From Hadesarchaea archaeon (GTDB lineage Archaea > Hadarchaeota > Hadarchaeia > Hadarchaeales > Hadarchaeaceae), in the NCBI GenBank assembly GCA_029259175.1, contig JAPDJH010000004.1, positions 62,001-126,000 on the forward strand: a stretch of 64,000 bases of DNA, read 5' to 3'. The notes under the pieces are model-generated. The model saw only the letters and a program-made list of their open reading frames with translations, ran no database searches and was not told the origin of the DNA. The first letter of the stretch is position 1, and every line of letters begins with the position of its first letter. The translations under genes and the position numbers were made by a program. Shown piece after piece: positions 17,778 to 51,327 of this stretch.

Positions 17778-19096
17778 GCGGTGAGTCTTTTAAAACCTTC
17801 TAAAGCTACCGGTCCCTTCAACATGGAGTAAACTTCTTTTTTCTTCATCCCAGCTATTTTTTTAAATACCATTTCAACACTCTTGAAATATTTATTCAAA
17901 TGCGATTTGCGATGGCTATAGGAAACGTAAACCGTTTTGGTCGCTAAAAAACCTTTTTCCAGCATTTCTTGAGTGAAGAAGGTGTAAAGAGCCTGATTTA
18001 GCTCTCCGTAATTGAACTTGAAAGTAGGAACCGAGGGGAGTCCCACTACCTCCAACTCTAATCCACAACTCTCAGCAAGTTCCACCCAACCTCTCTTTAT
18101 TTCCTTGCCCACCTTACAGATATGTCGTGGTACTTGACATTCACTCATCTTGGTAATGGTTGCGATAGCGGCTGCAGGACCCACACGTTCTGTCCAATAC
18201 GTGCTGCTTATGAAACTGTCTTGAGCCACGTCCATAATTTCTCTCTTTCCTATCACTGCAGCCATTGGAAAACCGTTGCTCATCGCTTTGCCAAAAACGG
18301 CAAGATCAGGATACACCCTATAGTACATATGAATGCCGCCCACATTGACGCGCCAACCTGAAGAGACCTCGTCAAAAATGAGAACAGCTCCGATACGATC
18401 AGCTATTTTTCTGACCTTTTGCAAGAATTTGTTCTTAGGCTCTCGTTCTCTTCTGGGCTCCATTACAATAGTTCCGATATCGTTATTATCCACAATTTTT
18501 TCAAGTTCTTCAATTTTGTTGTAACGAAATGGTATCGCGGTTCCTTTCAAAGCCCGCGGAACTCCAAGAGGCTTGAGGCCGGGAAGCAAATGTCCATCTA
18601 AGGCTTTCTCGTCGGCCAAGTTTGCGGCCAGATACCAATCAGACCAACCGTGGTAGCCGCAAAATGCTACTTTATCTTTCCCCGTGCTTGCCCTAGCAAT
18701 CCTCACTGCCACTGCCATGGCTTCACCGCCAGTCCTCGCATATCTCACCATGTCTGCCCAAGGATGAAGTTTTAACAAAAGTTCTGCTAGCTCGACCTCT
18801 TCAGGTGAATTTAGAGTGCACATAGAACCTCCATCTATCACATCCTTGACAGCCCTGTTAACATCGGGATCAGCGTAGCCGAGAATGCATGAACCGACAC
18901 CCATGTAAGACATATCCAAATATTGCTTTCCTTCTAGCGTCCATACCCTAACACCTTTCGCCTTCTTGAAGTATGCTGGCCACAATTTTGGCAAAAAATG
19001 TTCAGAACGTTTTGAGAGCATCTGGGTTCCCCCGGGGATTATCTTTTTTGCTTTTTCCCAAAGTTTTGCCCCAACATTTTTGGATTCGCTCGCCAT
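17774..19096 (-). CDS. Class III aminotransferase (glutamate-1-semialdehyde-mutase-like)
   Basis: A 440-residue PLP enzyme. KKIIPGGTQMLSKR opens like HemL, RTGGEAMAVAVRIARA binds the phosphate, LIFDEVSSGWRV carries the pyridine Asp, and FGKAMSNGFPMAAVIG holds the Schiff-base Lys. It lies between NeuB and the Gfo/Idh/MocA enzyme, far from any haem genes, so a role on a sugar or keto acid of the glycan pathway is more likely than tetrapyrrole synthesis. The start ATG has GGTGA a few nt upstream. Confidence 0.8.
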   Translation of the reverse strand: MASESKNVGAKLWEKAKKIIPGGTQMLSKRSEHFLPKLWPAYFKKAKGVRVWTLEGKQYLDMSYMGVGSCILGYADPDVNRAVKDVIDGGSMCTLNSPEEVELAELLLKLHPWADMVRYARTGGEAMAVAVRIARASTGKDKVAFCGYHGWSDWYLAANLADEKALDGHLLPGLKPLGVPRALKGTAIPFRYNKIEELEKIVDNNDIGTIVMEPRREREPKNKFLQKVRKIADRIGAVLIFDEVSSGWRVNVGGIHMYYRVYPDLAVFGKAMSNGFPMAAVIGKREIMDVAQDSFISSTYWTERVGPAAAIATITKMSECQVPRHICKVGKEIKRGWVELAESCGLELEVVGLPSVPTFKFNYGELNQALYTFFTQEMLEKGFLATKTVYVSYSHRKSHLNKYFKSVEMVFKKIAGMKKKEVYSMLKGPVALEGFKRLTA

Positions 19097-43905: not shown

Positions 43906-44712
43906 TCACCTGCGTTCAGAGTTATCCCGCGTTTGATTTAAGTCTTTCTTGAGGAGGGTTCCGGCCTTTACGACGGGAATTCCGAGCCGCTCTCCCACCC
44001 GGTTGCAAATCTCGCGTTGCTCCGCCGATGCTCCCTTCCAGTCCACCACGATATACTGCACACCGCCCGCGGTCCGCTCGATGGCCAGCTGCAACAACTC
44101 GTCCGAGAGAGATGCGTACTTTGGTATGATGTGTCCAATACCGATGTCTGTCTCCAGCGATACGCGGGTAAAGAGGGGCGCGTAGTGTATGCCGCCCACA
44201 CCAACGGCCCTCGAACAGCGCTCGGGAGAGAGCGCTGCCAGAGCCGCTCGCGCAGCTGCTTCCCCAGCTCTCTCGTCCTTCCACTCTGCTGGCGTGCTTC
44301 CGACCTCGATGAAAGTTACGGGAAGGGAAAAATCGGCTGGGCCGTGGTGCGTGGCCTCAAGCGAAACTTGGTATCCGAGCCGCAGATCGTCATTTGCTCG
44401 CTGAAGTTCTAACAAAGCGGCTCTTATGGTCTGAGGAGAAGCGATGGCTATCCGGCGCTGGTCCAAGAGTCCGGGAACATGGGTTGTCAGCGATGGACGC
44501 CCCGATTCGCTGGCGTGGCGTGAGAGCACGACTATTTCGCTCGCATCGATGGGTGGTGAAGCTAATTCGGTGCTCTCGGTTTCGATCAACAGCAGTATTG
44601 CGCCCGGTCTCTCATAGCCGCGCATGGTCTTTTTAAACCCACCAAGTTCGATCAGTTTTTGCGCGATGTTTGCTGCAGCCGGGTCTGATTTGGAAGCGAT
44701 GATTAGCTTCAT
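43906..44712 (-). CDS. dtdA: Archaeal D-aminoacyl-tRNA deacylase
   Basis: A 268-residue DtdA/GEK1-type zinc enzyme that removes D-amino acids from t[21 protein letters not shown] at the start, [40 protein letters not shown] and [13 protein letters not shown] are the signature blocks; the His residues in these are the metal and catalytic candidates. It leads the ftsZ-secE-spt5 run. No homology to bacterial Dtd is expected. Confidence 0.93.
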
Positions 44713-44797
44713 CCGCTAGACACTGGACGTTAAACAGTTAAATGTGTGCGTCATGGAGAGAAAGTACTAATAATATTCGAGCACACCAAGTTTTTGG

Positions 44798-45349
44798 ATG
44801 AACGTCCCGGCACTTCTTAGTCCAGAGCGTGAGTTCTATCTCATCAAAGAGAAGTTTTGGGACTGGGGCAGCGGGGACATCTACGATGAACGGGGAAACA
44901 CTATTGGACGAATGAAGCGCAAGGTGTTGTCCCTGCGCTCTCTAATAACTGTGATGGACCTAAACGGCGAACCCATTTTCACTATTAATCAAAAATTGGC
45001 GTCTTTGCGATCGTGTTTCGACATAAAAGACAAAGATGGGAGGTTGATCGGGAGGACTAAGAAGAAAATCCTCTCCTTGTTCAGGCCAAAGCTGTGGCTG
45101 GAGGACCAATTTGGTAACCAGATATTGGAGGCCCAAGGGTCGTTTGCTGGCTGGGATTTTGTAATTAGAGATAAAACGGGTAAAACGCTAGCCGAGGTCC
45201 GAAAGCTGGACAGGTGGCGCGATGTGTGGCTTGGCGGAGTTTTTGATTTTAGCGACACATATGCGGTCAAAGTTCTTGAGAAGAACTGCGATCGGCGGCT
45301 GGTGCTTGGATTCGTGCTTGCCATAGACAACAGCGTGCACGATAGATAG
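44798..45349 (+). CDS. LURP-one-related (YxjI/Tubby-like) protein
   Basis: A 183-residue protein made of repeated beta-strand units such as YDERGNTIGRMKRKV, VMDLNGEPIFTINQKL and IKDKDGRLIGRTKKKIL. These fit the LURP-one/scramblase-like 12-strand barrel around a helix, possibly lipid-binding. The function in archaea is unknown. A TATA-like AT-rich stretch at 44766-44775 lies about 28 nt before the ATG. It ends just before the island repeat. Confidence 0.72.
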   Translation: MNVPALLSPEREFYLIKEKFWDWGSGDIYDERGNTIGRMKRKVLSLRSLITVMDLNGEPIFTINQKLASLRSCFDIKDKDGRLIGRTKKKILSLFRPKLWLEDQFGNQILEAQGSFAGWDFVIRDKTGKTLAEVRKLDRWRDVWLGGVFDFSDTYAVKVLEKNCDRRLVLGFVLAIDNSVHDR

Positions 45350-45361
45350 TTCGCTGACAAA

Positions 45362-45386
45362 AAACAAATGAGCCTAGTGGGATTCG
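45362..45386 (-). repeat. Outer att-like repeat of the island
   Basis: 25 nt matching the tRNA-Val 3' end plus flank at 22 positions; the three differences are all transitions (45371, 45375, 45376). Same orientation as the tRNA copy. It sits 13 nt after the LURP-one stop. The loss of match in the T-arm after GATTCG marks the inner limit. Confidence 0.65.
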
Positions 45387-45428
45387 GTCGTTAGAAGGGT
45401 TGAGTGAGTAAAAATGAGCATTTTGGGG

Positions 45429-45734
45429 CTATCTGCGGCCCTTCTCCCGCCTGCTCTTGGAGGACAGCTCACGGAGGATCCGCTCGCCCTTCTCGGTCAA
45501 CATGTACTTGGAGGTCTGCTTACTCCTCCGCTCGAGGAGCCTGTCCACTAACCCCGCGGAGTAGAGGACGCCGACGTGGTAGGCGAGCAGCCCCCGCTCA
45601 ATCCCCAGCTTCCTGGCAAGGTCGTTGAAGTAGACGCCCTGCTCTCTCGCTATCTCGACGAACGCCCGCAGCCTGTGGGGGTTGTCCAGCGCCCGGTAGG
45701 CCATCAGCTTCTCGCGTACCTTCCGCAGATCCAT
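45429..45734 (-). CDS. Winged-helix transcriptional regulator (ArsR/MarR-like)
   Basis: About 101 residues with a winged-helix layout: ALDNPHRLRAFVEIAREQG, FNDLARKLGIERGLLAYHVG as the recognition helix, and the wing TSKYMLTEKGERILRELS. ATG 45734 is chosen because GGTGAGG abuts it and a TATA-like TTTATATA lies about 36 nt upstream; a TTG ten codons earlier is in frame. Arg- and GC-rich, unlike the AT-rich spacers around it. It probably regulates itself and the neighbour at 45836. Confidence 0.78.
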   Translation of the reverse strand: MDLRKVREKLMAYRALDNPHRLRAFVEIAREQGVYFNDLARKLGIERGLLAYHVGVLYSAGLVDRLLERRSKQTSKYMLTEKGERILRELSSKSRREKGRR

Positions 45735-45835
45735 CCTCACCGCCGTTTGAATGTTGTTTTTCAAATATATAAATCTTTATCTGGTAAACTTTTCTTTATC
45801 TAAAGCCTTCCACTGCTTATACCGTCGCGCCAGTT

Positions 45836-46315
45836 TCAAACGACCTCCTCGACGGGAAGGAACCCGCGCTCGCCGAACCTCCCGTACGGGTACACGTGAC
45901 CGTGCACCGCGAGATGGATGAGGTAAACGTCGGTCAAGTAGCTGCGGGAGCGCCCGTGCAACGGGTGGTGCCGGTGGTGGACGAGGACCCTCAGCTTCGG
46001 GGCGATCCCCTCGTCCATGTGGAACTGCCCAAACTCCGTCGCGGAGCCCCACGACTCTACGTTGACGAACACTAGCTCCACGTCCCCGCGCCGTAGCATG
46101 CTCCGCTCGGCGAGGTCGGGTGCGATGTGGGGAGGGAAGTCGTCCTCGGGCACGAGGGCGATAATGCCCTCCCTCCTGAGTCTGCGCTTTATCCTGCGCC
46201 TCAGCTCGAGCCCGCGCCTGCCCGCCCCGAGAAGGACGACGATCAGGGAGGTCTCGTGGTACCTGCGCCTGAATTCCTCCTCGAGTTCGACGATCATCCT
46301 CCTGCTTATCGACAT
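45836..46315 (-). CDS. Nucleoside-deoxyribosyltransferase/TIR-like protein (tentative)
   Basis: About 159 residues. LIVVLLGAGRRGLELRRRIK followed by GIIALVPEDDFPP and VELVFVNVESWGSATEFGQF gives a Rossmann-like order with a Glu in the ATEFG position, as in nucleotide-base-cleaving NDT/TIR-type folds; HLAVHGHVYPYG follows. The match is by pattern only. Very GC- and Arg-rich. ATG 46315 lies about 30 nt after an AT-rich TATA-like element. With the regulator at 45429 it could be a defence or stress module of the island. Confidence 0.45.
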   Translation of the reverse strand: MSISRRMIVELEEEFRRRYHETSLIVVLLGAGRRGLELRRRIKRRLRREGIIALVPEDDFPPHIAPDLAERSMLRRGDVELVFVNVESWGSATEFGQFHMDEGIAPKLRVLVHHRHHPLHGRSRSYLTDVYLIHLAVHGHVYPYGRFGERGFLPVEEVV

Positions 46316-46383
46316 TCGAAAGAACACCGTGGCGACTACAATTAAATTTTCCGTTAATTACGATCAGCACCTCCTTGGATTTC

Positions 46384-46710
46384 TCACGGGATCCACAAAC
46401 TCGTAAAACGAATCGCCGACCTCATACATATCATTTCCACGCCACAAAAGTCACAACCAGCAGTCTTCAGTTTTCGGCGAATGTTGGATTCGTAAGCCGC
46501 GCCGCGGAAATAGATCGAGGTGATGTCGTAAAAGACTGAGGAGCCTAAGCGCTTCAGCTCCAGTATAGGCCGAACTCGAGCCTGTAGGTCTCGTCTTCCG
46601 TGAGGCCGAGCGACTCGTAGAGCCTCCGATGCCGAGAGTCCACCGAAGCACGCACCCAATCCAAAGCGGTGGAAGTTCTTGACCATCTGGCTCAGGCTCG
46701 AGAACCTCAG
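46384..46710 (-). pseudogene. Transposase remnant (IS1634/IS4-like)
   Basis: Pieces of a DDE transposase can be read but in different frames. One frame gives LKRLGSSVFYDITSIYFRGA, close to the conserved Asp region of IS1634-type transposases; a second frame just upstream gives DSRHRRLYESLGLTEDETYR before a stop. No full frame, terminal inverted repeats or target duplication are seen. It lies directly downstream of tRNA-Val inside the island. Confidence 0.4.
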
Positions 46711-46720
46711 CAAGCTGGCG

Positions 46721-46745
46721 AAACAAATGGGCCCGGTGGGATTCG
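46721..46745 (-). repeat. tRNA-side att-like repeat of the island
   Basis: Seven nt of flank, the discriminator and the 3' acceptor and T-arm part of tRNA-Val, repeated at 45362-45386. It is the intact copy, so the tRNA stays functional. Confidence 0.65.
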
Positions 46746-46800
46746 AACCCACGCTCTCCACCTCGTAAGGGTGGCGTCATAACCGCTAGACCACGGGCCC
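46728..46800 (-). tRNA. tRNA-Val (anticodon UAC)
   Basis: A 73-nt cloverleaf: acceptor GGGCCCG pairs with CGGGCCC, the anticodon stem CCACC/GGTGG encloses CTTACGA (anticodon TAC), and the T-arm is GTGGG-TTCGAAT-CCCAC. Discriminator A; no CCA is encoded. Its 3' end faces the island and serves as the att-like site. Confidence 0.93.
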
Positions 46801-46843
46801 GCTCCTCTTTAGCTCTCGTGTCAAAAAATCCTTTCTCATATTC

Positions 46844-47998
46844 TTAACCCACGACCATGATGATTTCCAGAACAACGATGGCCAGTATCAGCGCCAGCAT
46901 AGCGGTCTCCAAAAAATTGGAGCGCTGGACGTCTATCCGCGTCATCACCATGGTGTAGAGCTGCTGTAAGCGCTCTAATTTTTCGTTTACCAGCGCAAGC
47001 CAGTCCGAAATGCGCATCCGCTCGCTCGTGAGCCGGTAAAGCTTTCCCAAGTACCATTCGCCCGTAAGCTTTCCGATATTGCGAGCGTCTTCGATGAGAT
47101 CCATTACATCTATGCGGAACTCCGTCAGATCACCGAGTACGCGGGAGAGTTCGCGGTACTGGCGTCGTGTTAGCCACCACCGTAGCCCCGGGCCTTTGAG
47201 CACTTGGCGAAGGGTTGTGTACGCCCTCGAGATCTGCTGGTCGAGCAGGCGATCGTAGGTTTTGAGCTCAAGGAGCTGCACGAGGGCGAACTCGATTATG
47301 CGAACCAAGTCGTCCATATACTCAACAGCGCCGCTGATGAGAGCGGCATACCAGTCGACGATAACGATGTCCTCGGTGGAATAGCTAAGATAGAGCTTGA
47401 GAGCGTCCTCGATCTCTCGGACGTTCAAGACGCGCCACTCGAGTTCGCCACGGAGCACGCCCGTAGTCTGTTTTGCATAGTTCGTCCGGAAGTCCTCTGC
47501 GCTCAAGCGTGGTTCTGAATCGGTGATGAGAACCAAGCTGTAGATCTGTGGCTGTTCGAACGATGGATAAGGAAACAGGATGGCAGACGAGATGGTTTCG
47601 CGCAGTTTTCGGAAGTAGTCGAGCGGGATATCATCAAACACAATTTCGCCGCTCTCCACGCGAACGGTGTTTTCGTTCAAACGCACGAGCTTGATGAGAT
47701 CATCGAAAGTAATTTTTTGAAAATCGATGGAAATATACACTCCTATCACGCCGATGGGAAAAATGCGCCCCTCGATTGTCGCTTGGTGTCCATCGATCCG
47801 CATCGCTCCCAGCTGAACCTCGAGTGGATTCATCCCGTATTCCTCATATTTGGGCGCGAGAACGCGGTCTCCCTTTTGTCGAGGACGCTCTATGAGAGTG
47901 AGCTGGGATTTCGGAACACGATCAAGGTCGATATCCCCGCCCACATCGTAGAGATACTGGAAGATGACACGTCCGGTAAGCAAAGGCTCGTCCGGCAT
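46844..47998 (-). CDS. RMD1/YagE-family (DUF155-like) protein
   Basis: A 384-residue protein with one C-terminal membrane helix. The ending RSNFLETAMLALILAIVVLE is the family hallmark: a Leu-Glu turn leading into a hydrophobic tail. YSTEDIVIVDWYAALISG and the long helical part before the tail also fit. RMD1 relatives are mitochondrial inner-membrane or bacterial proteins with poorly known roles. It is 43 nt from tRNA-Val on the same strand. Confidence 0.65.
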   Translation of the reverse strand: MPDEPLLTGRVIFQYLYDVGGDIDLDRVPKSQLTLIERPRQKGDRVLAPKYEEYGMNPLEVQLGAMRIDGHQATIEGRIFPIGVIGVYISIDFQKITFDDLIKLVRLNENTVRVESGEIVFDDIPLDYFRKLRETISSAILFPYPSFEQPQIYSLVLITDSEPRLSAEDFRTNYAKQTTGVLRGELEWRVLNVREIEDALKLYLSYSTEDIVIVDWYAALISGAVEYMDDLVRIIEFALVQLLELKTYDRLLDQQISRAYTTLRQVLKGPGLRWWLTRRQYRELSRVLGDLTEFRIDVMDLIEDARNIGKLTGEWYLGKLYRLTSERMRISDWLALVNEKLERLQQLYTMVMTRIDVQRSNFLETAMLALILAIVVLEIIMVVG

Positions 47999-48073: not shown

Positions 48074-48625
48074 TCAGAACAGGACGATCGTTTGGGCCAG
48101 CAAGAAGGACAGAACCCCCAAGATATCAGCGATGGACGTTAGCAGTGGGCCCACGATGTTATCCGGATCGAGACCCCGCATGTATGAGAAGATGGCGATA
48201 AAAGTGGAGCTGAGGATCACCAGTGGTGTCAGGATGAGTCCAGTCAAGAAGAAAGTCGCGGCGAATGCCACCGGGTTGGCTAGGCCGCGCGCCCAAGCCC
48301 ATCCCCCGATCACCACCGAGATGACGAAGAAGGACGTGATTCCCGACTTTACAGAGTCGAGCATTCTCTCGCCGAGCGCGTGCTGTTTTTTGAGAGCGGG
48401 CTTCACTATTCCGAGGTGAAGGGCGGAGCCAAGTCTTGCACCCAGAATGCTCCCCACATTGCCCGCCATGCCGTTTATCGGAGGAATGAGCGCGAGAACA
48501 GCCGGGAGCATCACCATGCGCTCTAGATTCATCTGTAAAAACATGCCAGCGAAAATGGATAGGACGGCGCTGAGCAGGAGAGCGAGGGTGTTCTCCTTCA
48601 CGATTTTGCTAACGGACCCTACCAT
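48074..48625 (-). CDS. MgtE-type divalent cation transporter half (second)
   Basis: A 183-residue membrane protein with about five hydrophobic spans. PPINGMAGNVGSILGARLGSA is the conserved MgtE pore segment, and DPDNIVGPLLTSIADILGV the second one with the ion-binding Asp. There is no cytosolic N or CBS domain, so it is a half-size transporter. ATG 48625 overlaps the stop of the paralogous gene by 7 nt; the two probably form a heterodimer. Confidence 0.82.
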   Translation of the reverse strand: MVGSVSKIVKENTLALLLSAVLSIFAGMFLQMNLERMVMLPAVLALIPPINGMAGNVGSILGARLGSALHLGIVKPALKKQHALGERMLDSVKSGITSFFVISVVIGGWAWARGLANPVAFAATFFLTGLILTPLVILSSTFIAIFSYMRGLDPDNIVGPLLTSIADILGVLSFLLAQTIVLF

Positions 48626-49182
48626 CCCAACCACCCCACAAGCACAACCGCCAAGAAGATACACAGAATTGCAACGATGTCTCCCAGCGTTGTCATGAGC
48701 GGTGCTGTGACATTATCTGGATCCCACCGTCTGCGGTAGGCGACTATGGCGATGATCACCGTGATGGGAATCAAGATCAAGCCGGAGAGAATCCCAGCAA
48801 ACAGGGCGATGAAAACGAAAATGTAGGGAGGCCCCACCGCTTGATTGGCGAGAACACCGATCGTGAAAGAAAGAATTCCAACGGCGAAGGACGCCAGCAC
48901 GCTCACGATGATGGCTGATAGCACGTTGATTTTTAGTTCGTGGGTGATCGCGAGACGGGGCTTGATAGTCCCGAGATGTAGAGCCGTCCCTAGCCTCGAA
49001 CCCAGCGCGCATCCGATGTTGCCACGCATGTCGATGAGCGGGGGCACCAGAATGATGAGCCCAGGGAGGGCCTCCAGGCTATGCCTCATGTGTTCCAGCA
49101 CAGACCCTGCAGTGAGGTCTAGCAGAGCGCACGCAGAAAGAATGACGACTTGCTGGAAGAAGATCGATCTCTGGCCGCTCAT
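48619..49182 (-). CDS. MgtE-type divalent cation transporter half (first)
   Basis: A 187-residue membrane protein. PPLIDMRGNIGCALGSRLGTALHLG and DPDNVTAPLMTTLGDIVAIL are the two conserved MgtE/SLC41 pore motifs, in the same order as in the partner gene at 48074. Together the pair makes a complete internally duplicated transporter, likely for Mg2+. It reads away from tRNA-Ser. No Mg riboswitch is apparent upstream. Confidence 0.82.
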   Translation of the reverse strand: MSGQRSIFFQQVVILSACALLDLTAGSVLEHMRHSLEALPGLIILVPPLIDMRGNIGCALGSRLGTALHLGTIKPRLAITHELKINVLSAIIVSVLASFAVGILSFTIGVLANQAVGPPYIFVFIALFAGILSGLILIPITVIIAIVAYRRRWDPDNVTAPLMTTLGDIVAILCIFLAVVLVGWLGW

Positions 49183-50701: not shown

Positions 50702-50926
50702 ATGAAACGATTTGAGGTAAAAGTTAGCTCCAAGGGACAGTTGGTAATTCCCAAGGAGCTCAGAAAAAAGTATAAGATCAAACCAACATCCACGGTGGTG
50801 CTTCAAGAAGAAGAGGGCGGAATCAAAATCCTCGCCCCCGTGAACCTCGCAGACGTGTGTGGCAGCCTGCAAATCGACCGCAAGTGGGCAAAAAAGGCAA
50901 TAGAGAGGGATAGATCTGAATGGTGA
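50702..50926 (+). CDS. vapB: AbrB/MazE-type antitoxin
   Basis: A 74-residue swapped-hairpin DNA-binding protein: FEVKVSSKGQLVIPKELRKK is the classic AbrB signature, followed by VVLQEEEGGIKILAP and a helical toxin-binding tail ending RDRSEW. AGGAGG is 3-4 nt before the ATG. It overlaps the PIN toxin gene by 7 nt. It would neutralise the toxin and repress the operon. Confidence 0.9.
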   Translation: MKRFEVKVSSKGQLVIPKELRKKYKIKPTSTVVLQEEEGGIKILAPVNLADVCGSLQIDRKWAKKAIERDRSEW

Positions 50927-51327
50927 AGATTTTACTTGACACAATGGCACTGATCGACATCTTGACAGACAGGCGCTTCAAGCGGCTGGCATCCTTCATA
51001 GACCAGGAGAAAATCCAAGCGGTGATTTCGACGATAAGCCTGACCGAGATTTTCAAAGTTGTAGGATCGAAAGACGAAATAAAAGCGAAAACACTGATCG
51101 ACTGGATTGTCGCCTCGAGGCTGGAGAAGAGAAGTGTCGACGTTTCGGTAGCGAAAAAGGCAGGAGAGCTCAAACTGCACTATAATTTGCCAACTGCCGA
51201 TGCCCTCATCGCCGCAACCGGAATTGTGAGTGGAGCTACTCACGTTGTGACGGAGGACGTTCATTTTCAAAGCGTGAAGTCCCTCATCAAACCCATTGGA
51301 TTGAAACAAGCGGAGCGAATGGTTTAA
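50920..51327 (+). CDS. vapC: PIN-domain toxin (VapC-like)
   Basis: A 135-residue PIN ribonuclease. The acidic residues are D7 (LLDTMALID), E47-region (STISLTEIF), D95-region (LPTADALIAATG) and D113-region (VTEDVHF), in the right order. It would cleave RNA when not bound by the AbrB-type antitoxin encoded just upstream. Coding overlaps by 7 nt. Confidence 0.88.
   Translation: MVKILLDTMALIDILTDRRFKRLASFIDQEKIQAVISTISLTEIFKVVGSKDEIKAKTLIDWIVASRLEKRSVDVSVAKKAGELKLHYNLPTADALIAATGIVSGATHVVTEDVHFQSVKSLIKPIGLKQAERMV

What the first reader, a model, noticed from the sequence alone, without database searches (positions are those of the whole stretch)
45362..46745. Direct repeat of the tRNA-Val 3' end marks an integrated island
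Positions 45362-45386 repeat 46721-46745 with 22 of 25 matches, all three differences being transitions. The repeat spans the acceptor 3' strand, discriminator and part of the T-arm. The DNA between holds accessory-type genes and a transposase relic, with no core genes.
Basis: seen in the sequence. Interest (0 to 1): 0.7.

Follow-up and report, generated by a model that had tools for sequence, protein, structure and literature searches.

The report
Vestigial islet beside an archaeal tRNA-Val
Next to a valine tRNA gene in a Hadarchaeota archaeon lies a second, decayed copy of the tRNA's tail with about 1.3 kb of foreign-looking DNA in between, most likely the worn-down remains of a mobile element at a spot where the chromosome has also been rearranged: a real but fairly ordinary scar.

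Summary
The repeat is real: 45362-45386 matches 46721-46745 at 22/25, and the three differences are transitions. No other site in the 1.3-Mb genome matches within 3 mismatches. It covers the T-loop to discriminator part of tRNA-Val(TAC) plus 7 bp of trailer, in the orientation an attachment-site pair would have. The 1.33 kb between holds a winged-helix gene and an NDT-like gene, both without clear homologues in relatives and GC3-outlying (0.88/0.87 against a mean of 0.56), plus a fragment of an IS1634-type transposase. It holds no integrase and is below the usual 2-kb island limit. In Hadarchaeota this tRNA normally sits between ORF384 and a convergent gene, and DtdA is normally preceded by tRNA-Val(GAC). 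Here tRNA-Val(TAC) faces DtdA, so the locus is also a rearrangement junction. The LOR/LURP gene outside the repeat is equally lineage-specific, so accessory DNA does not stop at the repeat. Best reading: an eroded tRNA-anchored islet on a rearrangement junction. Main rival: a stub of a former tRNA-Val gene left by the rearrangement. Ordinary kind, low to moderate interest.

The parts
45362..45386 (-). decayed tRNA 3'-end copy (candidate attR, or tRNA stub)
   Evidence: 22/25 to 46721-46745, three transitions; no tRNA similarity further 5'
46721..46745 (-). intact copy of the repeat: tRNA 3' 18 nt plus 7-bp trailer (candidate attL)
46728..46800 (-). tRNA-Val(TAC) gene, intact
   Evidence: ARAGORN; Rfam RF00005, 71.9 bits
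45429..45764 (-). winged-helix (ArsR/MarR-like) gene; likely start at the ATG at 45734, inferred from TTTATATA upstream
   Evidence: Pfam HTH_20; Csa3-type wHTH in PADLOC; GC3 0.88, highest of 166 ORFs in 164 kb
45836..46327 (-). 163-aa NDT-like protein, similar to part of retron type II-A (STM3845/St85) effectors; orphan
   Evidence: PADLOC NDT_II-A E 7.9e-8; NF038232 E 6.6e-6, below its cut-off; no homologue in relatives, phages, plasmids, viral or genome contigs
46429..46712 (-). internal fragment of a transposase, IS1634-type motif FYDITSIYF, truncated 9 bp before the repeat
   Evidence: 85% DNA identity of 46563-46712 to G000:C3:7572-7716; weak NF033559 match
44798..45349 (+). LOR/LURP-one-related gene, lineage-specific, outside the repeat
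   Evidence: Pfam LOR 4.6e-16; absent from 40 relatives; GC3 0.59
43906..44712 (-). DtdA (D-aminoacyl-tRNA deacylase), core flank
   Evidence: Pfam; found in nearly all relatives
46844..47998 (-). ORF384, lineage-wide gene that precedes tRNA-Val(TAC)

Best explanation
An eroded, immobile islet anchored in tRNA-Val(TAC). A mobile element probably recombined, through a tyrosine recombinase acting in the T-loop/acceptor half of the tRNA gene, so that the tRNA was rebuilt and the displaced 3' end (45362-45386) marks the far end. The integrase and most of the element were later lost, leaving a wHTH gene, an NDT-like gene and a transposase fragment. The whole sits on a chromosomal rearrangement junction that joined tRNA-Val(TAC)-ORF384 to DtdA. 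Shown: the repeat, its orientation and sharp limit, the foreign composition, absence from relatives, and the altered synteny. Inferred: the recombinase, the order of events, the erosion.
For: Repeat unique in the genome; 3'-end fragment downstream of the intact tRNA in direct orientation; similarity stops in the T-loop, and the 60 nt further 5' are no more tRNA-like than random; the shared 7-bp trailer TTTGTTT matches tRNA-Val(TAC) and not tRNA-Val(GAC); the NDT-like gene absent from 40 relatives and the wHTH gene with only weak, generic hits, GC3 0.87 and 0.88 against a mean of 0.56, sd 0.11; transposase fragment cut next to the repeat. Archaeal integrases commonly use tRNA genes, with att cores from 8 bp upward, and integrase loss fixes elements (PMC8371274).
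Against: No integrase in the islet; the genome's three PF00589 genes lie on another contig or 38 kb away. Length 1.36 kb. The accessory LURP gene lies outside the repeat. The flank beyond the relic is not the ancestral 3' flank of this tRNA, so a second event is required. No empty site found.
Confidence: 0.5

Rival explanations
1. Rearrangement stub: the relic is the remaining 3' end of a former tRNA-Val gene (most likely the tRNA-Val(GAC) that ancestrally preceded DtdA) left when a rearrangement brought tRNA-Val(TAC)-ORF384 next to DtdA; accessory genes then accumulated in the junction.
For: tRNA-Val(GAC) precedes DtdA in the same orientation in at least nine relatives. In the window's genome tRNA-Val(GAC) has moved with its upstream genes to C2:169202, and the ancestral 3' neighbour of tRNA-Val(TAC) is at C2:141254. 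A decayed tRNA-Val-like sequence lies at C2:143851-143920, where the old TAC gene is expected. LURP outside the repeat is also lineage-specific.
Against: The relic's trailer matches TAC, not GAC; no tRNA sequence remains 5' of the T-loop; the relic is 650 bp from DtdA rather than about 30-160 bp as in G004, G008 and G009. The C2:143851 stub is not recognised by Rfam.
Confidence: 0.37
2. The relic came from another tRNA tail of the GGGCCC-acceptor class (Arg, Lys, Ile) carried by a mobile element, unrelated to integration at this tRNA.
For: Tails of different tRNAs in this genome resemble each other: Val(TAC) and Arg(CCT) match at 22/25.
Against: Best match genome-wide is the adjacent tRNA-Val(TAC), and no other site comes within 3 mismatches; orientation and distance fit an att pair.
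Confidence: 0.1
3. Chance similarity.
For: None beyond the repeat being short.
Against: 0 of 100 shuffles; outside tRNAs and the two candidate relics, no site in 164 kb on either strand scores above 17/25.
Confidence: 0.03

Closest known systems
tDNA-anchored genomic islands (Islander class, tyrosine integrase)
   Same: 3' tRNA fragment displaced downstream in direct orientation, intact tRNA kept, foreign cargo between
   Different: no integrase, 1.36 kb, decayed distal fragment, no empty site, rearranged flank
Archaeal tRNA-integrating elements reviewed in PMC8371274 (SSV/pNOB8/thaumarchaeal types)
   Same: use of a tRNA 3' half; att cores extending beyond the gene are described; integrase loss traps the DNA
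   Different: no int(N)/int(C) fragment at either end; core only 25 bp and imperfect
Retron type II-A NDT effector (STM3845/St85 family), for the 163-aa cargo gene
   Same: similarity over NDT profile positions 5-121; a wHTH gene follows it (the known effectors carry a DNA-binding domain: own knowledge)
   Different: no reverse transcriptase anywhere in the assembly, about 60% of the profile length, below the curated cut-off

Membership tests
tDNA genomic island (Islander criteria, PMC4383910) | tRNA gene plus displaced fragment reaching the tRNA end | tested here: met
tDNA genomic island (Islander criteria, PMC4383910) | 3' fragment downstream, same orientation | tested here: met
   both copies on the minus strand, relic beyond the 3' end
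tDNA genomic island (Islander criteria, PMC4383910) | contains or overlaps an integrase ORF | tested here: not met
   no PF00589 match in the interval; nearest is C2:147391
tDNA genomic island (Islander criteria, PMC4383910) | length 2-200 kb | tested here: not met
   1.36 kb start to start; limit read
tDNA genomic island (Islander criteria, PMC4383910) | fragment not inside a conserved protein domain | tested here: met
   relic lies between LURP (ends 45349) and HTH (starts 45429)
Integrated element in general | empty site in a relative | tested here: inconclusive
   about 25 Hadarchaeota genomes searched; none shares the tRNA-Val(TAC)/DtdA neighbourhood
Retron type II-A | reverse transcriptase gene | tested here: not met
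   PF00078: no match in the 91%-complete assembly
Retron type II-A | NDT effector | tested here: inconclusive
   significant but partial, sub-threshold matches; fold prediction failed, pLDDT 34
Retron type II-A | msr/msd non-coding RNA | tested here: inconclusive
   no retron RNA family listed at E up to 10 in 44600-47000, but Rfam does not cover all msr/msd types

The most novel reading that the evidence does not exclude
The wHTH plus NDT-like pair is an RT-less, two-gene archaeal defence module, a split counterpart of retron type II-A effectors, delivered to a tRNA hot spot by a now-lost element.
Probability: 0.12. Interest if true: 0.5.

Novelty: new member of a known kind. Interest (0 to 1): 0.25.

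Why it matters
It adds a worn tRNA-anchored islet in Hadarchaeota and shows that in this lineage tRNA-Val genes coincide with both foreign cargo and synteny breaks. It also cautions that a tRNA 3'-end repeat alone cannot separate integration from a rearrangement that leaves a tRNA stub, since tails of different tRNAs match each other equally well.

Tried and rejected
Chance. A longer decayed tRNA at the relic: no signal 5' of the T-loop. Homologues of the 163-aa protein in viral contigs, genome contigs, plasmids and phages, and of the wHTH protein in viral contigs: none. Homologues of the C3 transposase copy in plasmids and viral contigs: none. Structure of the 163-aa protein: unusable without an alignment, so no fold search was run. 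Retron: no RT in the genome. Other short repeats in the region are at the level expected by chance (inference).

Full report
What was checked. The 25-bp direct repeat is present exactly as described. ARAGORN places tRNA-Val(TAC) at 46728-46800 on the minus strand. The proximal copy is therefore the last 18 nt of the tRNA plus 7 nt of trailer. The distal copy differs at three positions; read on the tRNA strand these are C to T, G to A and C to T, so every change is a transition away from G/C, as expected of an unselected copy. No shuffle of the window reproduces it, and a genome-wide scan allowing 3 mismatches finds only these two places. One caution: tails of different tRNAs in this genome resemble each other, and intact tRNA-Arg(CCT) matches the Val(TAC) tail at 22/25 too. 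The number 22/25 thus shows derivation from a tRNA tail. That the source is Val(TAC) rests on its being the best match and on the shared trailer TTTGTTT, which tRNA-Val(GAC) of the same genome lacks.

What lies between. On the minus strand, away from the tRNA, are: a fragment of a transposase; a 163-aa gene; a 111-codon winged-helix gene. The transposase fragment is 85% identical over 150 bp to a copy at C3:7572-7716. It carries FYDITSIYF, a motif of IS1634-type transposases, and matches that NCBI model only weakly (E 0.013). Its similarity to the C3 copy ends 9 bp before the repeat. The 163-aa protein matches retron type II-A NDT effector models (E 7.9e-8 and 9.7e-7; NF038232 E 6.6e-6, under its cut-off). 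Its GSATEFG segment holds a glutamate (Glu98) that would be the NDT catalytic residue by analogy (inference). There is no reverse transcriptase in the assembly. The 163-aa gene has no detectable homologue in 40 relatives and the wHTH gene only weak, generic ones. Their GC3 values, 0.87 and 0.88, compare with a mean of 0.56 (sd 0.11) over 166 ORFs of 164 kb, and the wHTH gene is the highest of all. This supports foreign origin. The LURP gene just outside the repeat is equally lineage-specific, but has ordinary GC3 (0.59).

What relatives show. Matching records are named Hadesarchaea or Hadarchaeum. In 18 of 20 named loci a tRNA gene follows ORF384 directly; the sequences show a Val body with UAC anticodon, often with introns that confuse ARAGORN. 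In 15 of the 20 the convergent homologue of C2_141254 comes next among the genes shared with C2, and the only congener has the same gene downstream of its tRNA-Val(TAC). DtdA is instead preceded by tRNA-Val(GAC), same strand, in at least nine relatives. No relative has tRNA-Val(TAC) next to DtdA. The window's genome has therefore undergone a rearrangement at this very interval. Its tRNA-Val(GAC), with its old upstream neighbours, is now at C2:169202, and the 141254 block is at C2:133-142 kb. At C2:143851-143920, beyond that block and in the orientation expected of the old tRNA-Val(TAC), lies a decayed tRNA-Val-like sequence. It scores above all 4596 tRNA-free windows with the congener's tRNA as query, and third with the own tRNA, though Rfam does not recognise it. 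It was found in a post hoc search and is offered as suggestive.

Interpretation. Two readings remain. In the first, an element integrated at tRNA-Val(TAC) and eroded to 1.33 kb. The sharp T-loop boundary, the trailer identity and the foreign cargo favour it; tRNA 3' halves are standard targets of archaeal tyrosine recombinases, with cores as short as 8 bp reported and integrase loss known to trap DNA (PMC8371274). In the second, the relic is a stub of the tRNA-Val that used to precede DtdA; the ancestral neighbourhood, the rearrangement and the accessory LURP gene outside the repeat favour that. I put them at 0.50 and 0.37. By the Islander criteria (PMC4383910) the configuration, orientation and coding filters pass, but the integrase and length filters fail. 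It should be described as a tRNA-anchored islet or relic, not filed as a proven genomic island.

Limits. One congener only; a 91%-complete MAG; whole-genome laying was not available; the fold prediction of the NDT-like protein failed. Only 164 kb of contig C2 was examined base by base.

Noticed in passing
outside the window, G000:C2:146755-148605 (L095:755-2605) and tRNA-Gly(TCC) at C2:147003-147079: A tyrosine integrase ORF reads antisense through tRNA-Gly(TCC), with a HEPN-domain gene and a C5 cytosine methyltransferase beyond it. A 14-bp exact copy of the tRNA-Gly tail lies downstream near C2:161058. A better candidate for a true tRNA-anchored island, of about 14 kb.
   Followed up: partly
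outside the window, G000:C2:143851-143920 (L094, about 17851-17920): Decayed tRNA-Val-like sequence at the place where synteny predicts the ancestral tRNA-Val(TAC); not recognised by Rfam.
   Followed up: partly
L126-L145, just 3' of ORF384: Most Hadarchaeota tRNA-Val(TAC) genes at this locus look intron-bearing, at varying positions (D-arm side and anticodon loop), while the window's copy has none.
   Followed up: no
window 50702-51327: AbrB-type small gene followed by a PIN-like gene, a VapBC-like toxin-antitoxin pair by appearance.
   Followed up: no
window 48074-49182: Two tandem half-length MgtE genes; in the congener the pair lies on the other side of ORF384, between it and the tRNA.
   Followed up: no
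G000:C2:126021-127000: Nucleotidyltransferase gene and its neighbour with GC3 0.87 and 0.79, the next highest after the islet genes; possibly of similar foreign origin.
   Followed up: no
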